A stretch of 64,000 bases of DNA, taken from positions 1-64,000 of the forward strand of contig JAQBQB010000008.1 of assembly GCA_028287235.1 (NCBI GenBank). The letters run 5' to 3'. The notes beneath the pieces were generated by a model, which worked only from the letters and a program-made list of their open reading frames with translations, was not told the DNA's origin and did no database searches. Positions 5,238-33,255 of the stretch are shown in pieces. Each line of letters opens with the position of its first letter. Position 1 is the first letter of the stretch. The DNA comes from Gemmatimonadota bacterium (GTDB lineage: Bacteria; Gemmatimonadota; Gemmatimonadetes; Gemmatimonadales; Gemmatimonadaceae). A program made the translations under genes and the position numbers.

Positions 5238-5239
5238 CG

Positions 5240-6946: not shown

Positions 6947-6972
6947 TGCGAACGTCTCTCTAGATTAGGCCA

Positions 6973-8004: not shown

Positions 8005-8011
8005 CCGCCCC

Positions 8012-8426: not shown

Positions 8427-8449
8427 GACAACACAGTTCGTATTTCCTT

Positions 8450-9100: not shown

Positions 9101-9106
9101 GCTGTC

Positions 9107-9200
9107 GTCTAACGATCGTTGAACCTGACGAGCGATTTCCGGATTGCTCGCTTCGCTCGCTTTTATTTGACTCGCTCGCAGGTTGACTCGGGCGTTAGCG
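9107..9200 (+). repeat. attC site 12
   Basis: Left end GTCTAAC, right end GTTAGCG (last base off consensus), arms GTTGAACCTGACGAGC and GCTCGCAGGTTGACT, tip CTCGCTTCGCTCG. The odd GTTAGCG is matched by CGCTAAC at the next attC. Confidence 0.9.
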
Positions 9201-9248
9201 TGCAACACACGTTGTTGCCCGCCGGAGTTCCTCGGTGCAGATTGCAGT

Positions 9249-9494: not shown

Positions 9495-9500
9495 GTCAGC

Positions 9501-9813: not shown

Positions 9814-9907
9814 CGAACGCTGAAGCTGACAAGGGAGCTGCTGATTGCGCTCGGCTGCGCCGAGCGCTCTTATTTGATTCCCTTGCAGCTTAGCTCGGGC
9901 GTTAGGT
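9808..9907 (+). repeat. attC site 13
   Basis: Left end CGCTAAC, right end GTTAGGT, common arms, tip GCGCTCGGCTGCGCCGAGCGC. Confidence 0.92.
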
Positions 9908-9920
9908 GTCATCCAATCTC

Positions 9921-10640: not shown

Positions 10641-10641
10641 C

Positions 10642-10739
10642 ACCTAACGAACGCTGCACTTGACGGGCGATTTAAGGATTGCGCATGCTCGGCATGCGCT
10701 TTTATTTGACTCGCCCGCAAGTGAGCTCGGGCGTTAGTC
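10642..10739 (+). repeat. attC site 14
   Basis: Left end ACCTAAC, right end GTTAGTC, arms GAACGCTGCACTTGACGGGC and GCCCGCAAGTGAGCT, tip GCGCATGCTCGGCATGCGC. It starts one base after the gene's stop codon. Confidence 0.9.
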
Positions 10740-10755
10740 ACACGAACACGCTTCA

Positions 10756-11676: not shown

Positions 11677-11691
11677 GTTCCTCTAGCCGGT

Positions 11692-11791
11692 GGCTAACGA
11701 ACGCTGAAGCTGACAAGGAATCTGCGGATTGCGCGCGACTGCGCCCCGCGCTCTTATTGGACTTCCTTGCAGCTTAGCTCGGGCGTTAGAC
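11692..11791 (+). repeat. attC site 15
   Basis: Left end GGCTAAC, right end GTTAGAC, common arms, tip GCGCGCGACTGCGCCCCGCGC (imperfect). Confidence 0.9.
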
Positions 11792-11809
11792 CGCCACGGG
11801 ATACCAACT

Positions 11810-12544
11810 ATGGACGACTTGTACGACGCAATCGCCTCGGGTGCTGAGCTTTCGTCGGTCGCAGCCCGCGAGCTGCACGAGCGCGGCTTCGTGGTGCTAC
11901 CCGGCCCGGTGGCGTCCGCCGAAATGGAGCGGGCGACCAACGTGTACGACGCCATGCTGGCGTCGGCGAGCGTTCACGACGTTCACGCTGGCAGCACAAC
12001 AACCCGGGTCAACGATTTTGTCAACCGTGGCAATGAGTTCGATGCTCTCTACGTCTTTCCGCCTCTGCTCCAAGCGTGTTGTCGCACCATCGGTGGAGGT
12101 TTCAAGCTCAGCTCACTGCATGCGCGCACCCTGCGTCCGCACACTGCCGCGCAGGAGCTACATGTCGATGTAGATCGTGCTTCGGCCGATTGGCCGCTGG
12201 TCGGCTTCATTCTGATGATCGACGAATTCCGCCCCGATAACGGAGCCACGCGTTTCGTGCCGGGCACGCACCACTGGTCACACAAGCCGGAGGCGGTCAT
12301 GACAGATCGCCGCGCCGACTACGACGGTCAGCTTCTCGCGACCGGCCCAGCAGGTTCGCTCATCGTATTCAACGGGTCGACGTGGCACGGGCACGCGGCT
12401 AATACGTCGGACGGACCGCGCCGCTCCCTTCAGGGTGCGTTCATCCCGCGAACGGGGCGCGCGGCGACTGACTTCTCTGGACGCATGCGATCAGAGACGC
12501 GCGAACGACTCGGCGCGGTTGCACGCTATGTGCTCTCACTTTAG
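11810..12544 (+). CDS. Phytanoyl-CoA dioxygenase (PhyH)-like Fe(II)/2-oxoglutarate oxygenase
   Basis: A 244-residue cytosolic protein of the PhyH family. The iron ligands are visible as HVDVDR (HxD) and the distal His in TWHGHAANTS; the 2-oxoglutarate-binding Arg is in GPRRSLQGAF. FVPGTHHWSH is the conserved strand-turn between them, and GFVVLPGPV is the usual N-terminal block. Members hydroxylate small or lipid-like substrates; the substrate here is unknown. ATG start just after the attC core. Opening GTTAGAC and attC GTCTAAC match, so it is a genuine cassette and one of the few with a clear metabolic enzyme. Confidence 0.9.
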   Translation: MDDLYDAIASGAELSSVAARELHERGFVVLPGPVASAEMERATNVYDAMLASASVHDVHAGSTTTRVNDFVNRGNEFDALYVFPPLLQACCRTIGGGFKLSSLHARTLRPHTAAQELHVDVDRASADWPLVGFILMIDEFRPDNGATRFVPGTHHWSHKPEAVMTDRRADYDGQLLATGPAGSLIVFNGSTWHGHAANTSDGPRRSLQGAFIPRTGRAATDFSGRMRSETRERLGAVARYVLSL

Positions 12545-12594
12545 CCGAGGACACGGCCTCACGACTGCGGCAGCAGCGGCGCCTCGCGCAGGCG

Positions 12595-12694
12595 GTCTAA
12601 CGTTACGTTGCAGCAGACGGGCGAACTGAGGATGGCGCCTGCTGCCGCAGGCGCTTGTGTTTGACTCGCCCGCAGCTGAACTCTGGCGTTAGCC
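12595..12694 (+). repeat. attC site 16
   Basis: Left end GTCTAAC, right end GTTAGCC, arms GTTACGTTGCAGCAGACGGGC and GCCCGCAGCTGAACT, tip GCGCCTGCTGCCGCAGGCGC. It is the last site before the disrupted block. Confidence 0.9.
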
Positions 12695-12704
12695 GGCTAC
12701 ACAC

Positions 12705-12836
12705 ATGTCTGAGGAGCAACGAGGCAGTCCCGTCGAGTGGATTCCATGGCATCGGGCCGTGGTAATGCAGTTGCGTCGAGACATCCGGCCGGAGAGTATG
12801 ACGTTGGTCCAGAAAAGGCGGACAGGTCAGAACTAG
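12705..12836 (+). pseudogene. 5' end of a cassette gene, cut by an IS3 fragment
   Basis: ATG 10 nt after the attC core opens a frame MSEEQRGSPVEWIPWHRAVV that fits the position of a cassette gene. From about codon 32 the sequence is IS3 end (TGACGTTGGTCCAGA) and the frame closes at TAG after 43 residues. The original gene cannot be identified. Confidence 0.5.
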
Positions 12837-13075
12837 AGTAAGTTCGCTTCGCGGTCCGCTCCACTTCCCAAGGAGAGCGAACGAGGAAGCGGTCGAAATT
12901 CGGCGAGGAGCAGATGGCGTATGCGCTCCGGCAGGTCGAACGTGGAACGGCCGTCGCCGACGTGTGTCGTCAGCTCGGCGTGAGCGAAGCCACGGTCTAC
13001 GTCCGGAAGAAACAGTACGCCCACTTGGGTATGAGCGAGCTGCGGCGGCTCCGCTCTCGGGGAATGGCGCCGTAG
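12799..13075 (+). mobile_element. IS3-family left end with truncated orfA
   Basis: Begins with TGACGT, then carries an in-frame OrfA segment: KRSKFGEEQMAYALRQVE, GTAVADVCRQLGVSEATVY and MSELRRLRSRGMAP, a helix-turn-helix typical of IS3 OrfA. No start codon is found for it, and it stops after LRR where OrfA normally continues into a leucine-zipper region. So it is a 5' fragment. The other half of such an element (OrfB end) lies at the left edge of the window. Confidence 0.75.
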
Positions 13076-13323
13076 AGATTGTCAAACCGCGTTATGATAT
13101 CAAAGATGGTCGAGGCTTTGCCGATCGATTCAAAGACGAATCCGGTCGCGCTGCAGGCATTCATGGAGTCGCGCAGCACTCATGAGTGTTTTGAGATAGC
13201 CATCGAGGACTTCGGTGAGAGACCGAGCCCGTCTTGGTCCGGGACGTGGCGCCCGAACATCGGCTTCCTGGCAAGCTGCTCGACGAACAGCTCATGAATA
13301 TCGTCGCAGGCGCTGCCGCTCTC
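13076..13323. other. Region without a supported gene
   Basis: Short overlapping frames on both strands, none with recognisable motifs or a ribosome-binding site. It separates the IS3 fragment from a reverse-strand membrane-protein gene and may be mobile-element debris. Confidence 0.4.
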
Positions 13324-13767
13324 TCAGGCGCGTGCAGATCGCGTTTGCAAGTAGCGGACGGGAAGGGCGAGAACCCCGCCGAGAATCGCCTCAAGGACGG
13401 TAATCCCGGAAAGCGACGCGAGAGCTGCGAGGGTTGCAGCTGTGACCAGCCCATTTGATACGCCGAGCTGGGCGGGGGTCGGATGCATGACATGAAGCGC
13501 GATCGTCACGACGATGCTGATTCCTACGAATGCGATGACGCCGGCTATCAGAGCCGCGGCGAGGGTTGCCGCAAGCCCTGTCCGTAGCCGATGCGTTGCT
13601 GGTTGACGCGTCGCGAGCCAGAACGCGGTTGCACCGGTGATCGGCGGCCAAATCATCGGCCACGAGTACACGTTGGGGAATGACGCGTGGATAGTGAACA
13701 CGATCCCGCCGACGATTCCGACCCACCACACGATACTGCGAAACGAGCGCATCGAGGGGCTCCGCAA
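13324..13767 (-). CDS. Small integral membrane protein
   Basis: A 147-residue hydrophobic protein with four predicted TM helices (about 9-27, 34-50, 65-92 and 102-130). It is on the strand opposite to all array genes. A later in-frame ATG (at 13752) gives an alternative start. No family recognised. It lies between the IS3 fragment and a decayed attC, so it may be the remains of a reverse-oriented cassette. Confidence 0.55.
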   Translation of the reverse strand: MRSPSMRSFRSIVWWVGIVGGIVFTIHASFPNVYSWPMIWPPITGATAFWLATRQPATHRLRTGLAATLAAALIAGVIAFVGISIVVTIALHVMHPTPAQLGVSNGLVTAATLAALASLSGITVLEAILGGVLALPVRYLQTRSARA

Positions 13768-13942
13768 GTTGCCGTCGTCGCGTGTTGCAGATCACGGGCC
13801 AGTGAACTCGACTGCGTCAGGGCCGCCTAGAAAACGAGACCCGACATGTCCAGGGTAGCCCCGGCAGGTGCCCGAAAGTCGCGCTGCATTCTTCACAGGC
13901 GCGGATCACTTTCTCCGCATCATCACCAAGATCGAAGCTACG

Positions 13943-14036
13943 CCTCGCGAAGCGCTGGTTGAGTGCCAATATTGAGTACGCTGGCTCCGCGAGCGTTCTT
14001 GTATGACCCCTTTGCATCTTGGCTATGGGGTCATAT
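13943..14036 (+). repeat. Decayed attC
   Basis: The order of elements is recognisable but eroded: a left arm GAAGCGCTGGTTGAGTG, a tip ACGCTGGCTCCGCGAGCGT, then CTTGTATGACCCC and TTTGCATCTTGGCTATGGGG, corresponding to CTTATTTGATTCC and TTTGCAGCTTAGCTAGGG of intact sites. Both terminal cores are lost. It marks an old cassette boundary. Confidence 0.6.
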
Positions 14037-14097
14037 GGCCACAAGGTTCCTCGGTCCGTACCGCGCTCCTTGCTGCGAATCCGCCCGCGTCTCACCC

Positions 14098-14250
14098 TTC
14101 GGACACCGGCACGCGGATGCCGAGGAAGCGATCGCCTTCGCCGTACTGGCCTGGGCCCGTCTTGAAGAAACGTTGAAGAAGGGCGGCGGCGTCAGGATCG
14201 CCCGCTTTGCGCAGGCGACGCCGGGCGGTGGCGAGTGTGGGTGGCTTTGA
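14098..14250 (-). pseudogene. DNA alkylation repair (AlkD-like) gene, N-terminal fragment
   Basis: The minus strand encodes [40 protein letters not shown] and VPV, the conserved opening of AlkD-type HEAT-like DNA glycosylases ([16 protein letters not shown] is the family signature). The frame then ends within three codons, and nothing further of the roughly 230-residue enzyme remains. It starts about 30 nt after the end of the IPT lipoprotein gene on the same strand, so a chromosomal gene pair was cut here, next to the decayed attC. Confidence 0.7.
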
Positions 14251-14281
14251 CGATGGCGTAGGTGTCTCCGAGCTCGTGGCG

Positions 14282-16387
14282 TCAGCGAATGAAGTAAACC
14301 GCGCCGTTGTCGCTGGTGGCCAGCAGAACGGTTCCACCCGCGCCGTACGCGAGGCTTTTGGCCGTTCCAGGAATTGTCACGCTGCGAATGACGCGCGCGT
14401 TGGCGACGTCGACGAATTGAATCGTTCCGCTGGAGCTCGACGCGACCGCGAGCTGCGTTTGGTCGGCGCTGAGTACCACTGTCGTGGCGTTGGCCGGCAC
14501 GCCGGGAACCATGGTGACGGTGCCGCTCACGAGATCGACGATCGCGAGGCCATCGGCCTCGGCGACGAAAGCGCGGCGGCCGTCGCTCGTTGCGGCGACG
14601 TCGTTCGGCGCAGCAGAGAGCGCGTAGCGGCGAGTGATGGCGTTCGTCGCCATGTCGGTCGCAATGAGCTCTTTTCGCGACGCCGACGCAACGTAGAGCA
14701 CCGCCGGTGACGTGCTCCCGGCGAGCGCATTCGCCGAGCCTCCGATGTCGACAGTCGCGACGATTTTTCCGGCGGTCACGTCGACGGCGTCAACGATGCC
14801 CTGGTCGAGAGCGACGTAGACGTTGCTCGACGGAGATCGCGCGATGGCGTGCAGCGACGACGGCAGCTTGACGGTCGCGGTGGTCTTGCCGGTCACATAC
14901 GTCCCAAGACCGGGGTCCACGATGTCGCACTCATGCGTTCGGCAAATGCTTGCCGACGCGAAGATCGTGTCGGCCAACGCGGTGACTGCGGACGCGGCGG
15001 AGAATCGCATGGGGCCGGCGAGACCGGTCAGCGCCTGGCTCGATGGCGTGACCGCTCCCTGCAACGCTCCGGAGCTACCGACGACATAGAAGATTCCGTT
15101 TTGCGCGACCACCGCCCGATCGACGATGCCGCTTGGCGCAACGCGCAACGAATCCACTCGGCTTCCCGTCACGTGACTTACCGCGATCGCCGGCGCCACC
15201 GGTATGGAGCTACCTGGCGAGGAACCGCCGCCGACAAAGGTGCGCGGGCTCTCCGCGGTAAACGCTCCTGGATTCGCGACGGTGAGCACGATGGGCGCGG
15301 TGCCGTCGCCGGGCGCGAGGGTCACGAGCAGGGACGTCGCGGTGCGCGGCGTCGTGGTGCGGTCGTTGCCGTTCACTCGCGCTACGGCGCCTTTGACGAA
15401 GCGTTGGCCGGTGATGAGCAAATACGAATAGCCGGCGCGCACCGTGTCGGGGAATACGCTCGTGATCGCGGGAACCGGACTCAGAAGCGTGAAGTGGTTG
15501 AAGCCCAGGTCCAGCGCGCCGCTTCCCGGCGGAGGATTCGACACGTTGACGCCGAGCAGACCCGGAGTGACCTGGAGCGTGTCGGGCAGCGTGAAAGTGA
15601 TCTTGTCGCCGCGCGGATCGATCACCGGCGCCGCGGCCGCGACACCGTTCACCGACACGATCGCGCCCTGATCGAAGTTGTGCCCCGTCAGCGTGATGGT
15701 GATCGGCCCGGTACCGATGGTACCGCTCGACGGAGTGATCTGATTGATGACCGGCTGAAATCCGCCGGCGATGATCGTGACCGCGCCCGACTCACCGCCG
15801 CCGGGCGCGGGATTGTGAACGTCGAAAGTGAGCGTGCGTCTCGGATCGCACTCGTGGGTCAGCACCTCGAACACGAAGCCGCGCGGACCGGGCCGCTCGA
15901 GCTGAATGAGGCTGTCGTCCACAGTCACGGTGGTCGCGAGACTGAAGCCCGACCCAAACACCGACAGCCAGGTGAAATCGCACGAGCTGGAACGCCTGGC
16001 GATATGTACTGAGTCCACGTGCGGCCGCGGATACACCGTTGCGATGTGCGCTGGCGCGGATCGAACGGGCGGAGCGCTCTGCTTCTCCACCACGATGGTA
16101 TGCGCGCTGGCAACCGCGAGATCAGCCGGCTGAAGATCGACGCGCAGGCTTCCCGCGTCGACGAATGTCGTCACGCGTGGCAGGCTGTCGATGAGCACGC
16201 GGTCGCTCGCGTCGAATCCGCTGCCGGCAACAACGATCGTCGCGCCGGTGTCGATTGCCGTCAGCAGCGTCTCGGGAGAGACGGACAGAATGCTGAGATC
16301 GTGCTGATCGTTTGGCGCTGCCGTTCGGCTCTCGCAGCCGGCCACCCAGGCGAGCCCAACCAGTAGCGTGACCAAATACCGGCGCAT
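14282..16387 (-). CDS. Surface lipoprotein with IPT/TIG domains and a beta-propeller
   Basis: A 701-residue lipoprotein: leader [18 protein letters not shown] with the lipobox Cys at residue 18. Several IPT/TIG immunoglobulin-like domains follow (each with a pattern like [20 protein letters not shown] and VSVNG), then a C-terminal region of YVTN-type repeats ([37 protein letters not shown]) that would form a propeller. Probably anchored at the outer membrane; ligand unknown. The chosen ATG has TACATT six bases upstream, and the longer frame would begin in attC 17. It runs against the cassette array and is of chromosomal type. Confidence 0.85.
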
Positions 16388-16393
16388 TCTCCG

Positions 16394-16399
16394 AATGTA
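16394..16399 (-). promoter_or_regulatory. Putative -10 box for a leaderless transcript
   Basis: TACATT ends six bases before the ATG of the IPT lipoprotein, too close for a normal leader. The same box at 6-8 nt is found before three kinase genes in this window. Confidence 0.45.
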
Positions 16400-16492
16400 A
16401 TGCGCGGACCCTGAGCGTGTCAGCCCGCGCATTCGCCCTTGATCTAGTAGCCAGCGACGAACGGAATTCCTACCGCAATGCTGCCTAACGAA

Positions 16493-16579
16493 CGCTGAAG
16501 CTGACAGCCGATTTAAGGATTGCGCATGCATCACATGCGCTCTTATGTATTCGGCTGCAGCTTAGGTCGGGCGTTAGAC
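16493..16579 (+). repeat. attC site 17
   Basis: Left end GCCTAAC, right end GTTAGAC, arms GAACGCTGAAGCTGACAGCCG and CGGCTGCAGCTTAGGT, tip GCGCATGCATCACATGCGC. Its left end does not match the core opening at site 16, in line with loss of the original cassette. Confidence 0.9.
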
Positions 16580-16611
16580 GACACACCGAACTTTTTGCAG
16601 AGGGACAGCTA

Positions 16612-17430
16612 GTGGTCCTCTTCGCACTGACCGCTCTCCAGTTCGCCTCCGTCGGCATCGCCGATACCGTCACGACAGACAGCCTGCGACGAGAGCTTTC
16701 CGGCGTCATCCAGGTCGTCGCGTTTCCTAGCGGCAAAGACACGATTCTCTCTCCAATCGTGCCGCGACAATCCTCGCCCGTCTCCCTACTCGGTGCCTTC
16801 GATCGCGCGAACCCCTACGTGCTGACCTATCTGCTTGGCAATGCCGTCGGGTTTGACCGAGCTGCGATCCTCTATTCTGCTGCGCCCATCGCGAATCGCC
16901 AGAGCGCTTTTCTAACGGCCCTCCGCACCGATCGTCGGTTTGGCACCGCACTGTTTCCGATGGTCGCGTCGTTTGCGCTAACCCGAGGAACTATCGTCAG
17001 CGGCAGCGTAGGTAGCCCGCGCGATCGACGGCCACTTGTCTTCGATTCGCTCGTCGCCTTCGCGACACGATTTATCGTCCCGGAATGGAACGCCGCTCGT
17101 CATCGCTGGATCTGGAGCCTGTGTGCAAAGTCGACGGGGCTCGTCGAGCTCCCCATCGCCCGAGACGATGCGACGGAAGCGTTCATCTATGGCGTCGTTC
17201 GGCATGCCGTTGAGACAGGGGCGCTGGCTCCGGTCACAAGCGAAGTCGATGCCCGCATTGCCGAGGCCAATCGTTCGGCCCCGCTGAAGAGCGACAAAAA
17301 GGAACAGCGCCGGATTCAACGAGAGTTGTGGCAGCGCCTCACGCAAAACAGCGCCCTTCGCCGGCTCCTCACCGAGGAAATCCGCTCGCGTGCGGCGTAT
17401 GCGCCGTTTGCGGTTCCGCTCGGATCGTAA
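16612..17430 (+). CDS. Cassette protein of unknown function
   Basis: A 272-residue protein. The first 18 residues (MVLFALTALQFASVGIAD) could be a signal peptide; the rest is mixed, with a basic helical tail (SDKKEQRRIQRELWQRL). GTG start with AGAGGGA about 9 nt upstream. No family recognised. It is the last intact cassette gene before the array ends, and its attC begins 28 nt after the stop. Confidence 0.68.
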   Translation: MVLFALTALQFASVGIADTVTTDSLRRELSGVIQVVAFPSGKDTILSPIVPRQSSPVSLLGAFDRANPYVLTYLLGNAVGFDRAAILYSAAPIANRQSAFLTALRTDRRFGTALFPMVASFALTRGTIVSGSVGSPRDRRPLVFDSLVAFATRFIVPEWNAARHRWIWSLCAKSTGLVELPIARDDATEAFIYGVVRHAVETGALAPVTSEVDARIAEANRSAPLKSDKKEQRRIQRELWQRLTQNSALRRLLTEEIRSRAAYAPFAVPLGS

Positions 17431-17458
17431 CAGATCGGTCCATGTCCTCGTGCGTGTC

Positions 17459-17558
17459 GCCTAACGAACGCTGAAGCCGACAAGGGGTTTATTGATTTGT
17501 GAAGCCTGGCGGCTTCACGTTTGTTTGTTCCCCTTGCGGCTTAGCTGGGGCCTTAGAC
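17459..17558 (+). repeat. attC site 18, terminal, mutated core
   Basis: Left end GCCTAAC, arms GAACGCTGAAGCCGACAAGGGG and CCCCTTGCGGCTTAGCT with compensating changes (GCCG/CGGC), tip GTGAAGCCTGGCGGCTTCAC. The right end is CTTAGAC: the invariant G next to the recombination point is C, so this end should not recombine. It is the last attC in the window. Confidence 0.88.
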
Positions 17559-20169: not shown

Positions 20170-20723
20170 TCCCGTTTGTTCCGCTGACACCGCGAGGCGG
20201 GAAATCGCGGCTCGCCGTCGCTGCAGTCTCGTCATGCAACGCCTTTCGTCCGCTAGGCTGTTGCGACGGCGTCGGCTACTACCCACTCGACATCACCATC
20301 CGCAATCCAGCCGGCGATTCCATCGCCCTCGGCGCAACGGTGACGCTGGACGACGGCTCGTATCACGAGGTCGATGGGACCATCTACAATCCGCTCGAGA
20401 TCCCGGTCGCGAGCGATCGCGGCGGCCGCATCTCCACCATCCACGTCACCAAGCCGTTCTACACTGACGCAGTGACTCACGCGCGCGCGTCTGACGGTGG
20501 CTGTGTGGCGAATTCGGTCACCGACACGGTGAAGATCGTACTGACTCCCGCTCCGGGTACGCCCGCCGTGCGATCGATCCATTTGCTGCCGCCGCACGTC
20601 CTGCTCGATCGCGAATCCGTCCTTGTCGGCGTCGGCCACTGTCGATGTTCAGGGACATCCTACGACGACGGGCGACCCGCTGTGCGCGCAGCGAGCGCCG
20701 GGGAGTCGGGCACATACTGCTAG
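20170..20723 (+). pseudogene. Lipoprotein-like gene, copy 1, with internal deletion
   Basis: A frame reads KSRLAVAAVSSCNAFRPLGC, then GYYPLDITIRNPAGDSIALG, TVTLDDGSYHEVDGTIYN and AVTHARASDGG, followed by NSVTDTVKIVLTPAPGTP. The start codon is not clear. The 3' part is shared with a second copy at 23699-24056. Relative to that copy, 183 nt are missing at 20610/20611, and the shared tail (ATVDVQGHP...) is in another frame, so the gene is broken. The product would be an exported protein of unknown function. Confidence 0.55.
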
Positions 20724-21033: not shown

Positions 21034-21699
21034 ATGGAAGTGAGAACGCTCAATCGTTCCGGACGAACCAGAAAGCGGCAAGAACAGAGCGTTCGTGCCC
21101 CTGGGCCAATCGTCTCGGACTGCCTGGCGTGTCCCGCGGCGTCTTGGCCGAACGAAATTACTGCTCGTTGTCGCCTGAGCGCCCGTGCAGGAATCACGAT
21201 AATTACGGCCGTGCTGGCCTTCACAACCGCCTGCTACCGCGCGCCTATATCGACCTGCGCGAGCCCACGCACGGCTCCGATGCGTCTAGACGCCGGTACA
21301 TCTGTAACTCGCAACGTTGACTCACAAAACGAGCGAAATCGAACTGGAGTCCTCCTCGACAGCGGCGGCGTCTACAGACTCGTTGGCGCGGGAGTGTGGA
21401 AAGATGGAAACAGGATTGATTGGAATTCACCGAAGGGGTATCCGCTCAGCGCGGTGCCATTGGCCGGGCGCTGGGTTATGTGGATGGTTCAGCCACTCCG
21501 ACGAGCAAGGCATGCGCCTTGGTTTGCCTTGGTCGGTGAGCTCAGCAGTCGTCCACGAGACTTCTTCGTGATCGGAGATCTTCTACCAGAGTTCCGACCG
21601 ACGGCGAATGGAGAGCTAGTTGCCTTCGCCAACGACGTAAAGCACTTCAATTTCAACAATCAGGGCTGTGTTACGCTCACGATTGATCGACTTCGCTAG
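21034..21699 (+). CDS. Lipoprotein with a LecA (PA-IL)-like domain
   Basis: About 221 residues from the ATG at 21034 (a GTG 21 nt earlier is possible). A hydrophobic stretch ending AVLAFTTAC gives a lipobox unusually far from the N-terminus, so the true start may be further in. The C-terminal domain has the order seen in the galactose-binding lectin LecA: GVLLDSGGVYRLVGAGVW, WFALVGEL, FFVIGD, then ANDVKHFNFNNQGCVTLTI, where the ND...NN residues match LecA's calcium/sugar loop. Assignment is by pattern. It leads a run of three exported-protein genes. Confidence 0.6.
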   Translation: MEVRTLNRSGRTRKRQEQSVRAPGPIVSDCLACPAASWPNEITARCRLSARAGITIITAVLAFTTACYRAPISTCASPRTAPMRLDAGTSVTRNVDSQNERNRTGVLLDSGGVYRLVGAGVWKDGNRIDWNSPKGYPLSAVPLAGRWVMWMVQPLRRARHAPWFALVGELSSRPRDFFVIGDLLPEFRPTANGELVAFANDVKHFNFNNQGCVTLTIDRLR

Positions 21700-21819
21700 T
21701 CATGCGCGCCTCTCCCGCGCGATATGCCCAAGTCGGCCGGGAGCCGTCGGCCAGGATCGCGATAGCGGTGAGCGGAGAAAGTGTGCCGCTAACATCAGCA
21801 ACACCCCGGGAGGCAACAC

Positions 21820-22131
21820 ATGTCAGTTCGCCGTCTGCTGTCGTGGAGCGTGCTCGCATTAGCTCTGGTATTGGCCGAATCGTGCTTGGCCAAACTGTCG
21901 CAGAGTAGCTATGTGCGAGTGTCGGTTCGTGGTTCTGGGCCACTCATGGTCGACGGCGCGGTGACGGCGTTGATTCCGCCCGATTCGATGACCGATCTAA
22001 ACCCCGGTTCGCATCGATTCACCATCGCCGCAACGGACCAATTCCTGCGCCTCGACACGATGATTGCTTTGAGGCCGAACAACCCATCGCGACCGGACAC
22101 GATTGTTCTATTGCAGGCAAAGCGGCCGTGA
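21820..22131 (+). CDS. Small lipoprotein
   Basis: A 103-residue predicted lipoprotein: leader SWSVLALALVLAESC with Cys near residue 22, then a beta-rich part with VRVSVRGSGPLMVDG and GSHRFTIAATDQF, reminiscent of PEGA-like surface modules. The stop overlaps the start of the patatin gene (GTGA), so the two are translationally coupled. Confidence 0.72.
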   Translation: MSVRRLLSWSVLALALVLAESCLAKLSQSSYVRVSVRGSGPLMVDGAVTALIPPDSMTDLNPGSHRFTIAATDQFLRLDTMIALRPNNPSRPDTIVLLQAKRP

Positions 22132-23663
22132 ATCCGTCTCTCACTCGGCAGAACGGCCGTCGCATCGCTCAGGGTGCCGGGCTGATTGGTTCCCTCTTCT
22201 TGTCGGGCTGCAGCCCAGTGCGCCGTGCCGTGGCCTCGGGATTCGCCTATCCGTTCACGCATTGCGAAATGGGCGCGTCGGTCGATTGCGCTCACTATCC
22301 CGATACCCCGGGCATGAAACGAATCGACACGACATTGGGGTATCGCTTTCGGAACACGCCGGCGTCCAGCACAAATAGCGACAGCTTGTTCGTAATACTC
22401 GTGCTCTCGGGCGGGGGCACGCGGTCGGCCGCGTTCTCGTACGGAGTTTTGGAGGAGTTGAAGAGGACCGTCATTCCTGGAACGACTCGCACACTGCTCG
22501 ACGAAGTAGATGTCATCTCGTCCGTTTCTGGAGGGAGCTTTCCCGCCGCATTCTTGGCGTTGAACGGACCGAATAAACTGGAAGACTTCAGGTCTCAATT
22601 TCTCAATTGGGACGCTCAATCGGAGCTTTGGCATTCAGTGCTCTGGCAAAGCACTCGCAATCGGTTAGCATCGCAATATTTCAGTCGAATCGACGTGGCG
22701 ATCGAAAAGTGGAATGAGCATTTATTTCACGGAGCCACGTTCGATGTGTTGCTCGGGCGCCGACCCTTCTTGATGCTGAACGCGACGGATATCGCCAAGG
22801 GATCCGTCTTTCCTTTCGTTCAAGACCATGTGGATCCGCTATGCATCGACCTGTCGCGGTTCGAGGTTGCTCGCGCCGTCGGTGCATCAGGAGCATTTCC
22901 GCCGCTGCTGAATCCGATGACTCTTCAGAACCATGCGACTAGTTGCCCGTACATTCCGCCAGAGTGGGTCGTACGAACGCTGCGAGAAGATGAACAGACG
23001 ACTGGCTCTGACTATCGCGCTGCGGAAGACTTGGTCTCGTATACCAACAGCGCCACACGGCCTTACGTCCATCTGACCGACGGCGGAATCGGGGACAATA
23101 TCGGTGCCCGCAACATTTCACGAATGCTTCGGTCAAAATACTCTGAAGTGCCCTTGACCGAAATGATTCGTCGAGGCGCCGTAAAACGGGTCGTCGTGAT
23201 CGTCGTAAACGCCGCAACGGAGAGCGAGGACGTGATTGACAAGCGGCCATATGCTCCCGGCATGTTGTCAACGATATTCGGCGCGATCGGCGCTCCGATG
23301 GACAACTACTCGCGCGCATCAATCCTTGATCTTTGGGACGCTGTCGCCGAGAGAGAGAACAAGGAAGAAGCGATTGCTCACTGCCCGTTCCTCGAGTGCC
23401 ACTCATACTACACGATCGGTTTGTCGTTTGCCGCCATTCGCGACGCGGATGAACGAACGTACTTCCAGCGTCTTCCGACCTCGTATGCATTGAGCTCGGA
23501 CCGAGTTGATGCCCTGGTAAACAAGGGTGAGACTCTGTTGCGCACTAACGTCGAGTTCAATCGCCTACTGTGCGATATGGGCACAACGACTTGGGCGAGT
23601 CGCCAGTCAGATGCGAACTGCGCAAGAAATGCCAAGGCGGGGACCCTGTACGTTCGTCCTTAG
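22128..23663 (+). CDS. Patatin-like phospholipase lipoprotein
   Basis: A 511-residue exported lipid acyl hydrolase. GTG start overlapping the previous stop; leader with lipobox LIGSLFLSGC (Cys about residue 28). The patatin core is present: oxyanion-hole glycines in VLSGGGTRSAAFSYGVL, the nucleophile Ser in SSVSGGSFPAAFLAL, and the catalytic Asp in LTDGGIGDN. The nucleophile elbow reads SVSGG rather than the common GxSxG, a change seen in other exported patatins. It probably hydrolyses phospholipids at the cell surface. The last codons abut the second copy of the broken unknown gene. Confidence 0.9.
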   Translation: MNPSLTRQNGRRIAQGAGLIGSLFLSGCSPVRRAVASGFAYPFTHCEMGASVDCAHYPDTPGMKRIDTTLGYRFRNTPASSTNSDSLFVILVLSGGGTRSAAFSYGVLEELKRTVIPGTTRTLLDEVDVISSVSGGSFPAAFLALNGPNKLEDFRSQFLNWDAQSELWHSVLWQSTRNRLASQYFSRIDVAIEKWNEHLFHGATFDVLLGRRPFLMLNATDIAKGSVFPFVQDHVDPLCIDLSRFEVARAVGASGAFPPLLNPMTLQNHATSCPYIPPEWVVRTLREDEQTTGSDYRAAEDLVSYTNSATRPYVHLTDGGIGDNIGARNISRMLRSKYSEVPLTEMIRRGAVKRVVVIVVNAATESEDVIDKRPYAPGMLSTIFGAIGAPMDNYSRASILDLWDAVAERENKEEAIAHCPFLECHSYYTIGLSFAAIRDADERTYFQRLPTSYALSSDRVDALVNKGETLLRTNVEFNRLLCDMGTTTWASRQSDANCARNAKAGTLYVRP

Positions 23664-23698: not shown

Positions 23699-24056
23699 GT
23701 CACCGACACGGTGAAGATCGTTCTGACGCCCGCTCCGGGCGCGCCCGAGGTGCGGTCGCTTCATCTGCTACGGCCCCACGTCCTGCTCGATTGCGCCCTA
23801 CACCTCGGTCGTCTCGTTCGAACCGTATGTGGGCGCCGCGCCCGGCATCTCGCGCGCCGTGTCATGGCGGATCGCCGGCGATACCGCCTCCGTCGATTTC
23901 GATCCGGCAATTGGAAAGGTTTCATACAGATGCCGAGCGGCCAGCGGCTTCGTCACTATGGCTGCCGTGTCGGTGGCGGATCCGTCCGTATCGGCGTTGG
24001 CCACTGTCGATGTTCAGGGACATTCTGCGACGACGTCCGATCCGCTGTGCGCGTAG
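23699..24056 (+). pseudogene. Lipoprotein-like gene, copy 2, 5'-truncated and frame-split
   Basis: Starts abruptly 35 nt after the patatin stop with TDTVKIVLTPAPGAP, the same sequence as copy 1, and then in a shifted frame encodes APYTSVVSFEPYVGAAPGIS, VSWRIAGDTASVDFDPAIG and SVSALATVDVQGHSATTSDP, ending LCA and a stop. It keeps the middle that copy 1 lost but lacks copy 1's 5' half. Both copies change frame at the same GAT(C/T)GCG site, so the lesion predates the duplication or the frame assignment differs there. Confidence 0.6.
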
Positions 24057-24157
24057 GGAGAATGGCCGCCGCACCGAAATGATGCCAGCGCCCCCGCGCT
24101 CCTCCACCATACTCGGCGCATGTTCGGTTGCGATCCGATTCGCCGAGGGAGTACCAT

Positions 24158-24754: not shown

Positions 24755-26497
24755 TCAGCGGAGTGGCGTCAGCACGATCGGGGCTCGAACGCCCGTTACA
24801 CTGTTGTAGCCAAGCGCCACAATCTGGCCTGCATCGTTCATCGCGACCGCACGCACCAGGTGCCATGACTTGTCGCTGATCTGCAGGTCAATCGAATACG
24901 CGCCGCTGGTCGTCACCACCGTCGTAGGGGTCAGATACGACCGTGACGCGGTCAACGAAAGCGTGGAGGTCGTTACCTGCGGTCCCGCCAGCGGCAGAAG
25001 GGACGTGCCGGCCGTGTCGGCATACGGCGGGACGACATAATCGGCCGGCACCATCTCCGGCCACACGGCGTTCGCCTGCGTCACGGTGCAGCACGTTTCA
25101 CGCGTCTCGAACTGCGTAACGATGTGCGTGCTGAATGGGCGGCCGAAGTCCCAGTCGGCGATCCACAAATCGCCGGCGTCATTCAGCGAGATGACCGCGG
25201 AGCCCGCGGCGGTTGAATACTGCCCGTCGGGATACGTGACGCCGCAATTGGTGTGGGCAAACGACGCGTAGTGGCAATCGGTGGCGAGGCCTTGGTAACT
25301 CAAACGAAACGCTTCCGCGGTTTGCGTCTTGATCACCTTGGCCGCCCGCCAAAAGACGATGGTGCCGAGCAGGTTGCTGCTCGTGTCCGTGACAACGGTG
25401 CCGTCGTTGCTGATGCCAACCGGAATGGGATGGCCGCCCGGCACTTCGGCGATCGGTCCGCCGGCATACCACACGAGCCCTTGATCGGCCGATGGGGAGC
25501 CGCTGGCCTTCGCATATCCTGCGACATCGCCGGAATTGTTGATGCCGATACCGACTGTGGAAGCGCCGCCGTATGTGCCGAGATCCTTGAAGGTCCCGGC
25601 GCTCCAGGCGAACGCGTGCGTCTCGCCGTTGGAGAAGGTCATCGTACCCGCCACGCGTCCGTCGCTGCTTACCCCCGCAGGCGACAGCGACGCACCCGCA
25701 GCGTTCGCGGGGCTAATCGCGACCACGCTATAACTCGGTGCCGGCGTTCGCGCGAACACGTTGAAGAGAATCCGCGTGGTGTCGCGAAACAGCGTGCCCT
25801 TGTAGGTCGCTTCGACGACGGGCCGCACGGTGTCGATGCCCACGAACGACGATGGCGCGACGTAGCGGACCAGCGTGTCCGATGCCGCGGTGGTTGTTCC
25901 GCGCGACGCGCCGACGTATCCGACAATCCGCGCCGACGCCCAGCGCCGGGGTGCGGCGGCGGACGCGCTCAGCAGTGTGCGCACGACGCGAGTCTCGCCC
26001 GCGGCCGCGGCAACGCTGTCGCGCACCGTCACCGTGGGGTGGACGACGGAAAAGACCATGATCACGGTGTCATGACCGCCGTCGGGCTTGCGAACGAGCG
26101 CCCAAACTTCGTCCGCTCCCGTACACCCTGATGGCGCGACGTATCGCAGCACGTTTGCGTCGATCACCGATGCGCTGCCGAGGTAGGGTTGCAGCACGCC
26201 CTCGAACGTATCGTGGTTGTAGCTGAACGGAACGGGGACGCCCGTATCGACGGTGTCGCCGAACGCTACCGGGACGTTCGCGACCGCCTGGCGGCCGAAG
26301 TTCCACGGATAGACCCGCCGCACGCTATCGACGCGCGGAACGCACGTGCGACTCGGCGCCGCTTTCGAGACGGACGAATCCGCATGGCCGACTGCTGTGG
26401 GCTCATTGGAACAGGCCGCGGGTGCGGCAGCGAGCGCGACAATCAGCGGCATGGCAAGCGCGACCGCGTGGCGACCTAACGTACGTGTCCTACGCAT
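24755..26497 (-). CDS. HAF-repeat lipoprotein
   Basis: A 580-residue exported protein: leader MPLIVALAAAPAAC with lipobox. The N-terminal half has repeated beta domains with the recurring DTVIMVFSVVHPTVTVRDS- and FVGIDTVRPVVEA-like strands. The C-terminal half holds HAF-type extracellular repeats (FKDLGTYGGASTVGIGINN, SGDVAGYA). It lies at the cell surface. Start chosen at MRRTRTLG, the first Met giving a normal leader. The function of HAF proteins is unknown. Confidence 0.8.
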   Translation of the reverse strand: MRRTRTLGRHAVALAMPLIVALAAAPAACSNEPTAVGHADSSVSKAAPSRTCVPRVDSVRRVYPWNFGRQAVANVPVAFGDTVDTGVPVPFSYNHDTFEGVLQPYLGSASVIDANVLRYVAPSGCTGADEVWALVRKPDGGHDTVIMVFSVVHPTVTVRDSVAAAAGETRVVRTLLSASAAAPRRWASARIVGYVGASRGTTTAASDTLVRYVAPSSFVGIDTVRPVVEATYKGTLFRDTTRILFNVFARTPAPSYSVVAISPANAAGASLSPAGVSSDGRVAGTMTFSNGETHAFAWSAGTFKDLGTYGGASTVGIGINNSGDVAGYAKASGSPSADQGLVWYAGGPIAEVPGGHPIPVGISNDGTVVTDTSSNLLGTIVFWRAAKVIKTQTAEAFRLSYQGLATDCHYASFAHTNCGVTYPDGQYSTAAGSAVISLNDAGDLWIADWDFGRPFSTHIVTQFETRETCCTVTQANAVWPEMVPADYVVPPYADTAGTSLLPLAGPQVTTSTLSLTASRSYLTPTTVVTTSGAYSIDLQISDKSWHLVRAVAMNDAGQIVALGYNSVTGVRAPIVLTPLR

Positions 26498-26804
26498 CTC
26501 TACGACTTCTCTCGACTCTGACAATGTTACAGCGGATGTGTATATACGAAAGCTAATCAACCGCATTCCCGGCCGCGATGTCGGCGACCGTCACTCGCGA
26601 AAGTGGGGCGCGCGCCGTCGCGTCACGGTCGTCATTCGAGAAGGGCACGACAAGGAGGCCAGAGCGGAGCACTTCGTCGATGAGCGCGCAACGGAGATCG
26701 CGAGCGTCATTCACAGCGGAATCGGCGTCGAAGTGCGTTCGGCGCCGCGGCCGGTGCGCCGTCGCCCACGAGCGTGCGGCGCCAAACTCGCCACTAACCA
26801 CCTG

Positions 26805-26833
26805 TTCCGGACACCCCGCAAAAGCCGTACATT
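26805..26833 (+). promoter_or_regulatory. Putative promoter of kinase 1
   Basis: TTCCGG and TACATT are 17 bases apart, and TACATT ends seven bases before the GTG start, so the transcript would begin at the start codon. Kinase 2 has the same pair (TTCCGC, 17 bases, TACATT). Confidence 0.5.
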
Positions 26834-26840
26834 CCCCGCC

Positions 26841-29800
26841 GTGTCCGACCTCCAGTCCTCCCTCCAGGCCACCCTCTCCGGGGCCTACACTCTCGAGCGC
26901 GAACTTGGCGGCGGCGGCATGTCGCGCGTCTTCGTCGCCGACGAGACCCGCCTCGGTCGGAAAGTCGTCGTCAAGGTCCTCTCCCCCGAGCTAGCCGCCG
27001 GCATCAGCGCCGAGCGCTTCGAGCGCGAGATCCGCATGGCGGCGTCGCTCCAGCAGGCCAACATCGTTCCGGTCCTCACCACCGGCGAGAGCAACGGCCT
27101 GCCGTACTACACCATGCCGTTCGTCGAAGGCGAGAGCCTCCGCGCACGCCTGGGCAAGTCGGGCGCGCTGCCGCTCGCCGAGGCCGTCGCCGTGCTGCGC
27201 GACGTCGCGCGCGCGCTCGCCTACGCGCACGATCGCGGCATCGTCCATCGGGACATCAAGCCCGACAACGTGCTCCTCTCCGGCGGCGCGGCGGTGGTGA
27301 CGGACTTCGGCATCGCCAAGGCGCTGTCCGACGCGCGCACGAGCGTGCCGGGCGGAACGCTCACGCAGCTCGGCACTTCCATCGGCACGCCGGCGTACAT
27401 CTCGCCCGAGCAGGCGGCGGGCGATCCGAACGTCGATCACCGCGCCGACATCTACTCGTTCGGCTGCATGGGGTACGAGCTGCTCACGGGCCGTCCGCCC
27501 TTCGCCGACCGCACGCCGCAGCGCCTCATGGCCGCGCACATGTCGGAGACGCCGCGCCCCATCGTCGAGCTGCGCCCCGATTTGCCCGAGTCGATCTCCA
27601 GCATGGTGATGCGCTGCCTCGAGAAGGAGCCGTCCGCGAGACCGCAGTCGGCGGCGGAAATCGTGGCGGCGCTCGACGCCACGCCGGTGAGCGGGGCGTC
27701 GCACCCGGCCATGGCCGGGGTGCTGCTCGGCGGACGCGGCATGCTGCGCCGCGCGCTCGGCGTGTATGCCGCGTCGTTCGTCGCGGTGGCGGTGCTCGCG
27801 AAGGCGGCGATCGTCGGCGTGGGACTGCCGGATTGGGTCTTCCCGGGCGCGCTGATCGTCATGGCGCTCGGGCTGCCGGTCATTCTGTTCACGGCGTACA
27901 CCCAGTACGTCGCGCGGCGAGCCGCGACGGCCACGCCGACGTATACGCCGGGCGGTGGAACTGCGCAGACGACACACGGCACCATGGCGGCGATCGCGAT
28001 CAAGGCGAGCCCGCACATGTCGTGGCGTCGCGCGATGTTCGGCGGCCTGTACGCCGTGGGCGGCTTCGCGCTCGTGATCGGTGCGTTCATGCTCCTGCGG
28101 GCGTTCGGCGTCGGGCCGGCGGGGTCGCTCCTCGCGTCGGGACGATTCTCGACGAAGGCCCCCGTGCTCATCGCCGACTTCGTGACGACCAACACCGACT
28201 CCTCGCTCGGCACCGTGGTGAGCGACGCGGTGCGCGCGGGTCTGGGGCAGTCGTCCGTCATCTCGCTCGTGAGGACGGCCGACGTGGCGGCGACGCTGCG
28301 GCTCATGCGACGCCCCCCCACGAGCCGGCTCGATCTGCCGCTGGCGCGCGAGGTGGCGCAGCGCAACGGCGTGCAGGCGATCGTGGACGGCAAGGTCACG
28401 GGCGTGCCGGGCGGGTACATCATTGCGCTGCGACTGGTGAACGCCGATTCCGGCACCGAGCTGGCGTCCTTTCGCGAGACCGGCGACGGACCGCGCGGAT
28501 TGATCGACGCGTCGGACAAGCTCGCGCGTGCGCTGCGCGGCAAGATCGGCGAGTCGCTGCGCGAGGTGCAGTCCACGCCGCCGCTGGCGCAGGTCACGAC
28601 GTCGTCGCTCGAGGCATTGCGTGCGTACAGTCTCGGGAGTCGCGCCAACAACGCGGAGAACGATCCCTTGAAGGCGGTGCGCTACTGGCGCGAGGCCACG
28701 CGGCTCGACACCTCGTTCGCCACGGCGTGGGTCGGCCTCGCGGTCGGGATGGGCAACGCCGAGATGCCGCAGGCGGGGATCGATTCGGCGCTGGAGCACG
28801 GCTACCGGGATCGCGACCGGCTCGCCGAGGCGGAACGTCAGCGCGTGGTCGCCGTGTACGCGGCGAGCGGGCCGCATCGCGATCGCACCAGGTCGGCGGC
28901 GCTCTTCGCCGACATGGCCCGCACCGGGGCGCGGCGCGGGAGCGCGCTCGTGAACGCCGGCGAGGCGATGCGGAGCTGGCGCGACTTCGCCGCCGCGGAA
29001 TCGCTCAACCTCGCCGCGGTCCAGCTCGACTCCTTGAACGCCGTGGCGCTCCTGAACGTGGTGCAGCTCGAGCTCGATCGCGGCCGTCCCGACTCGGCCG
29101 CGAAAACGCTCGCGGTGATCCGGCGGCGGATGCCTGACGATCGTGCCATCGGTGTGATGGAGAGCTGGATTGCGTACGGGAAAGGCGACATGCGGCGGGT
29201 GCAGCAATTGACCGACAGTCTGACCGATCCCGCGTACCGCCAGCGGCAGAAGAGTGTCGCCGCCAGTCTCGCCGCGGTCCACGGCCAGCTCGCGCAGGCG
29301 GGCCGCTTCATTCAGGAAGCAAGTCGCGCCGACAGCGCCCATCCGCAGCGATACCTGCGCGACTCGCTGGCGCTGGCCGCGGCGGATGCCTGGTTCCACG
29401 GGCCCAACGAGCGCGACGCCGCTCGCCTCGACGCCGCGCTCGCCCGCTATCCCATGCGCAACATCGCGATGGTCGACCGGCCGTACTTCGACGCCATCAC
29501 CGGCTACGCCCGCGCCGGCAAGGTGGATCGCGCGCGCTCCGTGCTGGCCGCCTACCGCGCCGATGTGACGGATACGGCCACGTTGCGCCTGCAGGCGGCC
29601 GAGCTGCACAACGCGCTCGGCGAGATCGCGCTCGCGGCCAACGATCCGCGTACGGCGCTCGCCGAGTTCCGGCGCGGCGATGTGGGCTACGACGGCAAGC
29701 CGGCCGCTGAATGCGCGGCCTGCACCGACTTCAAACTCGCGCGCGCCTTCGATGCCGCGGCGATGCCCGATTCGGCGATCGCCGCCTATGAGCGTTTCAT

Positions 29801-30026
29801 CAACACGCCGTACTGGAACCGGCTGGCGGAAGCCGATGCGCTCGGCCTGGCGGGCTCGCACAAGCGGCTGGGCGAGCTGTACGAGGCCAAGGGTGACGCG
29901 ACGCGTGCCATCCCGCACTACGAGAAGTTCGTGGAGCTATGGAAGAACGCGGACCCCGAGCTCCAGACGCACGTGGCCGACGTGAAGCGGCGGCTGACGC
30001 GCCTCATGGCAAGCGAAAAACGCTGA
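26841..30026 (+). CDS. PknB-type Ser/Thr protein kinase 1 with TM and TPR regions
   Basis: A 1061-residue membrane kinase. The kinase domain covers residues 16-275: glycine loop GGGGMSRVF, Lys45 in VVVKVL, HRDIKPDN with catalytic Asp138, DFG at 155-157, GTPAYISPE. Three TM helices follow (about 300-322, 329-350 and 398-420). Then comes a large outer region with a TolB-like domain (VLIADFVTTNTDSSLGTVVS) and TPR-type helical repeats to the C-terminus. All catalytic residues are present. The GTG start is fixed by homology with kinase 2, whose first 16 codons are almost identical. It is 46 nt from kinase 2, a tandem duplicate. Confidence 0.93.
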   Translation: MSDLQSSLQATLSGAYTLERELGGGGMSRVFVADETRLGRKVVVKVLSPELAAGISAERFEREIRMAASLQQANIVPVLTTGESNGLPYYTMPFVEGESLRARLGKSGALPLAEAVAVLRDVARALAYAHDRGIVHRDIKPDNVLLSGGAAVVTDFGIAKALSDARTSVPGGTLTQLGTSIGTPAYISPEQAAGDPNVDHRADIYSFGCMGYELLTGRPPFADRTPQRLMAAHMSETPRPIVELRPDLPESISSMVMRCLEKEPSARPQSAAEIVAALDATPVSGASHPAMAGVLLGGRGMLRRALGVYAASFVAVAVLAKAAIVGVGLPDWVFPGALIVMALGLPVILFTAYTQYVARRAATATPTYTPGGGTAQTTHGTMAAIAIKASPHMSWRRAMFGGLYAVGGFALVIGAFMLLRAFGVGPAGSLLASGRFSTKAPVLIADFVTTNTDSSLGTVVSDAVRAGLGQSSVISLVRTADVAATLRLMRRPPTSRLDLPLAREVAQRNGVQAIVDGKVTGVPGGYIIALRLVNADSGTELASFRETGDGPRGLIDASDKLARALRGKIGESLREVQSTPPLAQVTTSSLEALRAYSLGSRANNAENDPLKAVRYWREATRLDTSFATAWVGLAVGMGNAEMPQAGIDSALEHGYRDRDRLAEAERQRVVAVYAASGPHRDRTRSAALFADMARTGARRGSALVNAGEAMRSWRDFAAAESLNLAAVQLDSLNAVALLNVVQLELDRGRPDSAAKTLAVIRRRMPDDRAIGVMESWIAYGKGDMRRVQQLTDSLTDPAYRQRQKSVAASLAAVHGQLAQAGRFIQEASRADSAHPQRYLRDSLALAAADAWFHGPNERDAARLDAALARYPMRNIAMVDRPYFDAITGYARAGKVDRARSVLAAYRADVTDTATLRLQAAELHNALGEIALAANDPRTALAEFRRGDVGYDGKPAAECAACTDFKLARAFDAAAMPDSAIAAYERFINTPYWNRLAEADALGLAGSHKRLGELYEAKGDATRAIPHYEKFVELWKNADPELQTHVADVKRRLTRLMASEKR

Positions 30027-30072: not shown

Positions 30073-33248
<3,176 letters not shown>

Positions 33249-33255
<7 letters not shown>

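What the first reader, a model, noticed from the sequence alone, without database searches (positions are those of the whole stretch)
21034..23663. Lectin-like and patatin-like lipoproteins in one coupled unit
A LecA-fold lipoprotein, a small lipoprotein and a patatin lipoprotein are adjacent, the last two overlapping by 4 nt. A sugar-binding protein next to a surface phospholipase suggests a contact-dependent lipid-degrading system aimed at neighbouring cells or organic matter.
Basis: inference. Interest (0 to 1): 0.5.

Follow-up and report, generated by a model that had tools for sequence, protein, structure and literature searches.

The report
Lectin-fold protein beside a phospholipase gene
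An exported protein with the fold of the sugar-binding lectin LecA is encoded next to a lipid-cutting enzyme, and its relatives elsewhere are built into another kind of lipid-cutting enzyme, so this fold may help such enzymes find their target, although no sugar binding or activity has been shown.

Summary
The three genes are real. The first (21040-21699) is exported and has a confidently predicted LecA/PA-IL jelly-roll (pLDDT 90; Z 16.3, 1.7 Å to LecA) with the calcium-ligand pattern D199-N206-N207. The third (22128-23663) is a patatin with its motifs in place and a lipobox; it overlaps the small second gene by 4 nt. Lipidation is credible for the patatin, doubtful for the lectin, unsupported for the small protein.

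The three-gene set was not found again: of 395 phylum genomes, only this one matched both the lectin and the patatin profile. But the lectin domain keeps company with phospholipases. All 53 relatives found in a species-wide scan are C-terminal domains of Tle1-like (DUF2235) phospholipases, and a model of one shows both folds. The two other occurrences in those 395 genomes, a free-standing exported homologue and a remnant, lie 3.2 kb from a patatin and 1.1 kb from a Tle1-like gene (rough chance 2e-4). A 2024 paper calls EclA the first LecA domain fused to another domain, so this LecA-fold/phospholipase architecture looks new. I read it as a targeting module for lipases. Sugar specificity, calcium binding, contact dependence and target are untested.

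The parts
21040..21699 (+). Exported LecA-fold protein (P0001, 219 aa from GTG 21040; ATG 21034 and GTG 21013 also possible)
   Evidence: ORF and signal-peptide-like segment; 49% identical homologue with signal peptide (by eye) in G296
21283..21696 (+). LecA-fold domain (residues 82-219)
   Evidence: AF2 pLDDT 90.0, pTM 0.86 on 21223-21696; Foldseek PllA 1.3e-6, LecA 2.9e-6; VIA Z 16.3 to 1l7l; profile match to PllA E 8.6e-5
21634..21660 (+). Calcium-ligand pattern D199-x6-N206-N207
   Evidence: positions; same D-x6-[DN]-N spacing as the EclA side-chain ligands D114, D121, N122 (PMC11875179, passages)
21820..22131 (+). Small exported protein, 103 aa, PEGA-like by eye (recalled resemblance, not confirmed)
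   Evidence: no Pfam or NCBIfam family, no plasmid relative, no relative in 13 related regions, no lipobox match
22128..22131 (+). 4-nt overlap GTGA (stop of small gene / start of patatin)
22128..23663 (+). Patatin-like phospholipase, 511 aa, lipobox C28
   Evidence: Pfam PF01734 E 1.1e-15; lipobox pattern
22398..23108 (+). Patatin catalytic domain: oxyanion GGG 95-97, Ser134, Asp318
   Evidence: extent; motifs and alignment A5
20517..20695 (+). Left flanking decayed gene fragment (copy of the right one with its middle missing)
   Evidence: repeats D6 and D8, 86% each; only these copies in the own genome
23699..24060 (+). Right flanking decayed gene fragment (Ig-like 3' end by eye)

Best explanation
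The lectin-like gene encodes an exported, calcium-dependent LecA-fold binding module whose family serves phospholipases. In the 53 relatives found outside the phylum it is the C-terminal domain of a Tle1-like (DUF2235) phospholipase; here it is a separate exported protein beside a lipoprotein patatin. Proposed working: the patatin is anchored by its lipid (probably in the outer membrane) and cuts acyl chains from phospholipids with its Ser134/Asp318 dyad; the LecA-fold protein binds, through its Ca2+ site, a glycan or glycolipid head group on the envelope or debris being degraded, and so brings enzyme and substrate surface together in trans, as the fused domain would in cis; the small protein is a co-translated accessory. 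Shown: genes, predicted fold, motifs, overlap, the fusion elsewhere, the recurrent neighbourhood. Inferred: calcium binding, ligand, enzyme activity, cooperation, location.
For: LecA fold: model, Foldseek, VIA and profile. Calcium-type pattern kept: D and the second N in 53 of 53 relatives, the first N in 28 and A in its place in 25. Domain fused to the PF09994 Tle1-like catalytic domain in 53 of 53 loci; model of the Shinella member matches both Tle1-type structures (4o5p 3.5e-11, named Tle1 from recall; 6sjl 1.4e-7, named Tle1 in its entry) and PllA (4.5e-5). All three loci of the domain found in the phylum lie near a phospholipase gene: window 428 nt from the patatin; G296 3.2 kb from a 1040-aa patatin (28.7 bits, just over the 27.7 cut-off, over positions 1-53 of 191) with two putative alpha/beta hydrolases, both under their Pfam cut-offs; G005 remnant 1.1 kb from a Tle1-like gene. 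Rough chance of such closeness 6e-6 for all three, 1.7e-4 without the window. Family-conserved residues (W59, D61, R94, W100 of the model numbering) stay in the free-standing forms (alignment A4), so they are not kept only for contact with a Tle1 domain. Patatin motifs intact.
Against: No repeat of the lectin-patatin pair as orthologues: a profile search found no LecA-like domain in the regions fetched around the patatin's relatives (plasmids of Variovorax, Cupriavidus, Thiothrix, Citrobacter; G133, G222, G319, G010, G043). Lectin and small gene are 120 nt apart; no shared transcript shown, promoter scan not above chance (1 against mean 1.3). The 53 relatives were found with patterns drawn mostly from fused members, and 24 of the 53 are Pseudoalteromonas, so the count overstates independence and free-standing forms may be missed. 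The closeness estimate is post hoc and rests on three loci, and in G296 three ORFs lie between lectin and patatin. 25 of 53 relatives lack one calcium-ligand side chain. The closest studied analogue of a divergent LecA domain (EclA N-terminal domain) has no known ligand (PMC11875179, passages).
Confidence: 0.42

Rival explanations
1. The LecA-fold module does serve lipases but not by binding sugar: its calcium site bridges phosphates of lipids or lipopolysaccharide, or the domain is a structural or regulatory part.
For: 25 of 53 relatives lack the first Asn ligand; the EclA LecA domain keeps calcium but not the galactose-binding residues, has three arginines beside the ion and no known ligand (PMC11875179, passages); no match to any Pfam model.
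Against: All 11 Foldseek matches under E 0.001 are LecA-type lectins or the EclA domain, and LecA and PllA bind galactosides according to the EclA paper.
Confidence: 0.28
2. Unrelated neighbours: lectin and patatin are separate accessory genes that landed side by side in a mobile, low-GC stretch.
For: Third-position GC of 0.59 (lectin), 0.66 (small) and 0.65 (patatin) against 0.87-0.90 in the two kinase-type genes downstream; flanking decayed repeats; cassette array and transposase-like ORFs upstream; the pair is not seen elsewhere.
Against: Closeness to a phospholipase gene also at the two other loci found in the phylum, 1.7e-4 without the window, and fusion to phospholipases elsewhere.
Confidence: 0.25
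3. Toxin with immunity partner: the patatin is an antibacterial lipase and the small overlapping exported protein its immunity protein, the lectin being the binding part; as with T6SS lipases and their periplasmic immunity lipoproteins (recalled).
For: GTGA overlap of small gene and patatin; the lectin domain's partner elsewhere is the catalytic domain that Pfam names after a T6SS effector.
Against: PADLOC no hit for the three window proteins; the small protein has no match at E 1 in the 13 regions searched, those around nine patatin relatives among them, and the Variovorax overlapping ORF is an unrelated membrane-type protein; a lipobox and signal peptide suit the producer's own envelope. Delivery genes were not searched for.
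Confidence: 0.05

Closest known systems
LecA / PA-IL lectins (LecA of P. aeruginosa, PllA of Photorhabdus, EclA N-terminal domain)
   Same: Jelly-roll fold (Z 13.5-16.3), D-x6-[DN]-N calcium pattern, weak but significant profile similarity (PllA 8.6e-5)
   Different: 21-23% identity, extra segment with conserved W-x-D and RR..PWF motifs, signal peptide, possible cysteine pair shared with G296, no Pfam hit, sugar-binding residues not shown
Tle1-like / DUF2235 phospholipases (PF09994) with the C-terminal domain described here
   Same: Their C-terminal domain is homologous to the window's lectin domain, 27-39% identity for those aligned
   Different: There the domain is fused to the Tle1-like catalytic domain; the window protein is free-standing and exported, beside a patatin
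Patatin-like phospholipases (PF01734) such as Variovorax WP_319361795.1 and the G133 448-aa protein
   Same: Long similarity, 28-36% to the best plasmid-borne relatives and 47% to G133; catalytic motifs
   Different: No LecA-like gene in the regions fetched around nine such relatives
EclA of Enterobacter cloacae
   Same: LecA-fold domain joined to another function; [quoted passage not shown]
   Different: EclA's partner is a fucose-binding domain, not a lipase

Membership tests
LecA / PA-IL lectin | LecA jelly-roll fold | tested here: met
   predicted model:
LecA / PA-IL lectin | Calcium-ligand pattern D-x6-[DN]-N in the last loop | tested here: met
   sequence only: D199, N206, N207 against EclA D114, D121, N122; binding not measured
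LecA / PA-IL lectin | Recognised by the curated family models | tested here: not met
   no Pfam hit even at E 10, no NCBIfam hit; so a LecA-fold relative, not filed as a PA-IL family member
LecA / PA-IL lectin | Galactose-binding residues and activity | not tested
   no coordinates at hand to place the pocket residues; needs binding assay
Patatin-like phospholipase (PF01734) | Score over the family cut-off | tested here: met
   58.8 bits against 27.7
Patatin-like phospholipase (PF01734) | Oxyanion GGGxR, nucleophile GxSxG, dyad DG[GA] (motifs recalled) | tested here: met
   GGGTR 95-99, SVSGG 132-136 (first Gly is Ser, as in the Thiothrix and G133 relatives), DGG 318-320
Patatin-like phospholipase (PF01734) | Phospholipase A activity | not testable with these tools
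   needs enzyme assay
Tle1-like (DUF2235) T6SS phospholipase | PF09994 catalytic domain in the protein | tested here: not met
   window lectin protein has no PF09994; [quoted passage not shown]
Tle1-like (DUF2235) T6SS phospholipase | Delivery by a type VI secretion system | not tested
   no search for VgrG, PAAR or T6SS structural genes was made
Bacterial lipoprotein | Lipobox after a signal peptide | tested here: inconclusive
   pattern (recalled) matches patatin C28 and lectin C65, not the small protein; the lectin's homologue G296 has no lipobox beside its signal peptide by eye
PEGA-domain protein (small gene) | Recognised by the PEGA model of Pfam (recalled to exist) | tested here: not met
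   no Pfam hit at E 10; resemblance is by eye only

The most novel reading that the evidence does not exclude
There is an unrecognised, widespread family of LecA-fold domains whose job is to guide phospholipases: the C-terminal domain of many Tle1-like enzymes, and in this phylum also a free exported protein that steers patatins or Tle1-like enzymes in trans. If so, glycan recognition would be a general targeting step of a large class of bacterial Tle1-like phospholipases.
Probability: 0.3. Interest if true: 0.7.

Novelty: new variant of a known kind. Interest (0 to 1): 0.5.

Why it matters
How Tle1-like and patatin phospholipases choose their target membranes is not settled (my recollection). 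A lectin-fold domain with a calcium-site pattern, built into one class and loose beside the other, makes the question testable with ordinary protein chemistry. It also extends the LecA lectin fold, which I recall from a few host-associated bacteria, to environmental bacteria of several phyla and to a fusion with an enzyme; the 2024 EclA paper described EclA as the first LecA domain fused to another domain (PMC11875179, passage).

Tried and rejected
Single-sequence searches of the lectin protein: Pfam, NCBIfam, PDB and phages gave nothing useful, nor did E. coli genomes by DNA; viral contigs gave no relative of lectin or patatin. Matches of the full lectin protein in G011, G036 and G019 (query 17-109, 8-84, 23-89) lie mostly in the leader, and these genomes are not among the three that matched the domain profile in the family search; dropped as chance or signal-peptide matches.

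Small gene as a shared partner of patatins: the Variovorax patatin also overlaps a small upstream ORF by 4 nt, but that ORF is an unrelated membrane-type protein; no relative of the small protein was found.

Defence system: PADLOC gave no hit at E 0.01 for the window's three proteins, though the Variovorax patatin matches a PADLOC phospholipase effector model at 3.5e-5; the NCBIfam matches of the window patatin to CBASS and anti-phage phospholipases are far below their cut-offs (15.6 of 200 and 13.6 of 400 bits). Rejected for the window.

Integron cassette: the unit lies 3.5 kb past the last attC-like site. The only match to either site pattern inside it, at 22969, has 3 mismatches and no partner. 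Rejected.

G296 482-aa ORF beside its lectin gene as a patatin: only a weak match to the tail of TIGR03607 (E 0.006, 15.6 of 262 bits) and no Pfam hit; not counted as a lipase.

Direction of change (fusion to free or free to fusion): the tree groups the two free forms (100/99) but its root is only the midpoint, so not decided.

Papers: in the listed rows nothing on a LecA-type domain in DUF2235 or Tle1 proteins, or on patatins in Gemmatimonadota. Listings were cut (15 of 24, 10 of 1,103, 8 of 153). Passages, not whole texts, were seen of PMC11875179, PMC3482391, PMC11796346, PMC6653060 and PMC8618304. Subscription papers are mostly not held, so this is no proof of absence.

Full report
What is there. 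Three ORFs run on the + strand at 21040-21699, 21820-22131 and 22128-23663. The last two overlap by the four bases GTGA; the first is separated from the second by 120 nt. The third is a patatin (PF01734, E 1.1e-15) with GGGTR, SVSGG and DGG motifs and a lipobox at C28. The first has a signal-type hydrophobic stretch after an unusually long leader. The second is a short exported protein without recognisable family; I find it PEGA-like by eye, which is recalled and unconfirmed. 'Lipoprotein' holds well only for the patatin.

The lectin fold. Alone, the first protein matches no Pfam or NCBIfam family and no LecA entry of the PDB. tblastn against plasmids brought the clue: 11 records match; 10 of them, at E 5e-3 or better, match the query's C-terminal part (from residue 82-100 to 218-219), of which 9 are annotated DUF2235 proteins and one has no annotated feature; the eleventh (Jeotgalibacillus, E 0.05, residues 71-152) is a hypothetical protein. 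An alignment of six such domains (A1) used on one genome per species gave 53 relatives. A profile of 22 domains (A2) reached the LecA homologue PllA at E 8.6e-5, with EclA (0.031), a PA-IL entry (0.035) and LecA (1.1) below, and one unrelated entry among them. AlphaFold2 with 32 rows (A6) gave pLDDT 90.0 and pTM 0.86. All 11 Foldseek matches under E 0.001 are PllA, LecA/PA-IL or EclA. VIA-align gives Z 16.3 over 117 residues at 1.7 Å to LecA; the next row outside this group has Z 6.9. The calcium-ligand spacing reported for EclA (D114, D121, N122; passages of PMC11875179) is present as D199, N206, N207. Sugar-contacting residues were not tested.

Where the domain lives. In all 53 loci the domain is C-terminal in an ORF of about 420-610 residues, and all 53 ORFs match the Tle1-like catalytic domain PF09994 at E 1e-5 or better (18 of 18). 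The patterns used for that scan came mostly from fused members, so free-standing forms may be missed, and 24 of the 53 are Pseudoalteromonas; the others include Bacteroidota, Actinomycetota and Myxococcota rows. The calcium pattern is D-x6-N-N in 28 and D-x6-A-N in 25. A model of the Shinella protein (pLDDT 80.4) matches Tle1-type structures (4o5p 3.5e-11, titled uncharacterized and named Tle1 from recall; 6sjl 1.4e-7, titled Tle1) and, separately, PllA (4.5e-5). [quoted passage not shown] the rows listed by seven searches of the paper library show nothing on a LecA-Tle1 fusion or on patatins in this phylum (three listings were cut).

The own phylum. It is unnamed in the tools; from gene content I think Gemmatimonadota (recalled, not from a call). 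The A2 profile matches 3 of 395 genomes drawn from the phylum, and the A6 profile the same 3 of 179 genomes of the family: the own genome, G296 and G005. G296 has a free-standing homologue with a signal peptide (by eye), 49% identical, with a cysteine pair (C23, C161) that the window protein may match (C73, C210). Downstream in G296 come a 357-aa ORF, a putative alpha/beta hydrolase (26.1 bits, cut-off 26.3), a 208-aa ORF, a 1040-aa ORF whose start is a patatin just over the Pfam cut-off (28.7 of 27.7 bits, positions 1-53 of 191), 3.2 kb from the lectin gene, and another putative alpha/beta hydrolase on the other strand (16.2 bits, cut-off 27). G005 keeps only about 28 residues of the domain, ending in a stop, 1.1 kb from a 363-aa Tle1-like gene that lacks the lectin domain. 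With 5, 4 and 2 patatin or Tle1-like loci in the three genomes, the chance of such closeness is about 0.003, 0.010 and 0.001; combined 6e-6, or 1.7e-4 without the window, which was chosen for its adjacency. This estimate is rough and post hoc.

What does not recur. The A5 patatin profile matches 4 of 395 genomes at E 1e-20 or better: the own, G133 (47% over 430 residues; between a sensor kinase-like gene and an oxidoreductase-like gene by my reading), and G222 and G319, where only an N-terminal part matches (ORFs of G222). None of the five other genomes of the own genus matches the patatin by single sequence at E 0.001 (6 of 118 relatives do, the own included, the others with best E between 3.2e-4 and 1.6e-6). 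Plasmid-borne relatives (133 records, all under 60% identity) were followed in four regions. A search with the A6 profile of the regions of Variovorax, Cupriavidus, Thiothrix, Citrobacter, G133, G222, G319, G010 and G043 found no LecA-like domain, while the two positive regions (G296, G005) rang; the small protein had no match at E 1 in any of the 13 regions. So the three-gene unit is peculiar to this genome as far as searched.

Setting. The unit lies in an accessory-looking stretch: third-position GC 0.59, 0.66 and 0.65 in the three genes against 0.87-0.90 in the two kinase-type genes downstream, flanked by two decayed 86% copies of one gene fragment, the only copies in the genome, and 3.5 kb beyond a cassette array with 15 paired attC-like sites.

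Reading. The fold, the fusion and the neighbourhoods together make a lipase-serving binding module the best explanation (0.42), with a non-sugar role of the module (0.28) and unrelated neighbours (0.25) as serious rivals. Nothing here shows sugar binding, catalysis, contact dependence or a target.

Noticed in passing
578-17558: Integron cassette array: 15 paired attC-like sites, all + strand, cut off by the contig start; pattern matches in the window far above shuffles (19 against mean 1.4; 20 against mean 3.1). No integrase over the TIGR02249 cut-off in the genome (best candidate C29:29123-29917).
   Followed up: partly
20517-20695 and 23699-24060: Two decayed copies of one gene fragment flank the unit; the left one lacks the middle of the right one. 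Possible trace of how the unit was inserted.
   Followed up: partly
26346-30026 and 30073-33255: Two tandem protein-kinase/TPR-type genes (by eye) with stretches 71-91% alike.
   Followed up: no
L078 10108-17978 (G296): Lipase-rich cluster round the free-standing LecA-like gene: putative alpha/beta hydrolase, 1040-aa ORF with a patatin start, second putative alpha/beta hydrolase; a Tle1-like gene matched in two pieces lies about 12 kb upstream.
   Followed up: partly
L080 9678-9761 (G005): A remnant of the LecA-like domain beside an operon-like pair of a membrane-type ORF and a Tle1-like gene.
   Followed up: yes
L015 5887-7197: A relative of the patatin lies on plasmids of Citrobacter, Klebsiella, Enterobacter and others; in the Citrobacter record read, a conjugative plasmid, it sits near RND efflux genes.
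   Followed up: no
L021 2779-3246: A 155-aa hypothetical protein of Jeotgalibacillus (Bacillota) matches part of the lectin protein weakly (E 0.05); possibly another free-standing form.
   Followed up: no
31-402, 5724-6755: Transposase-like ORFs (by eye) inside or before the cassette array.
   Followed up: no
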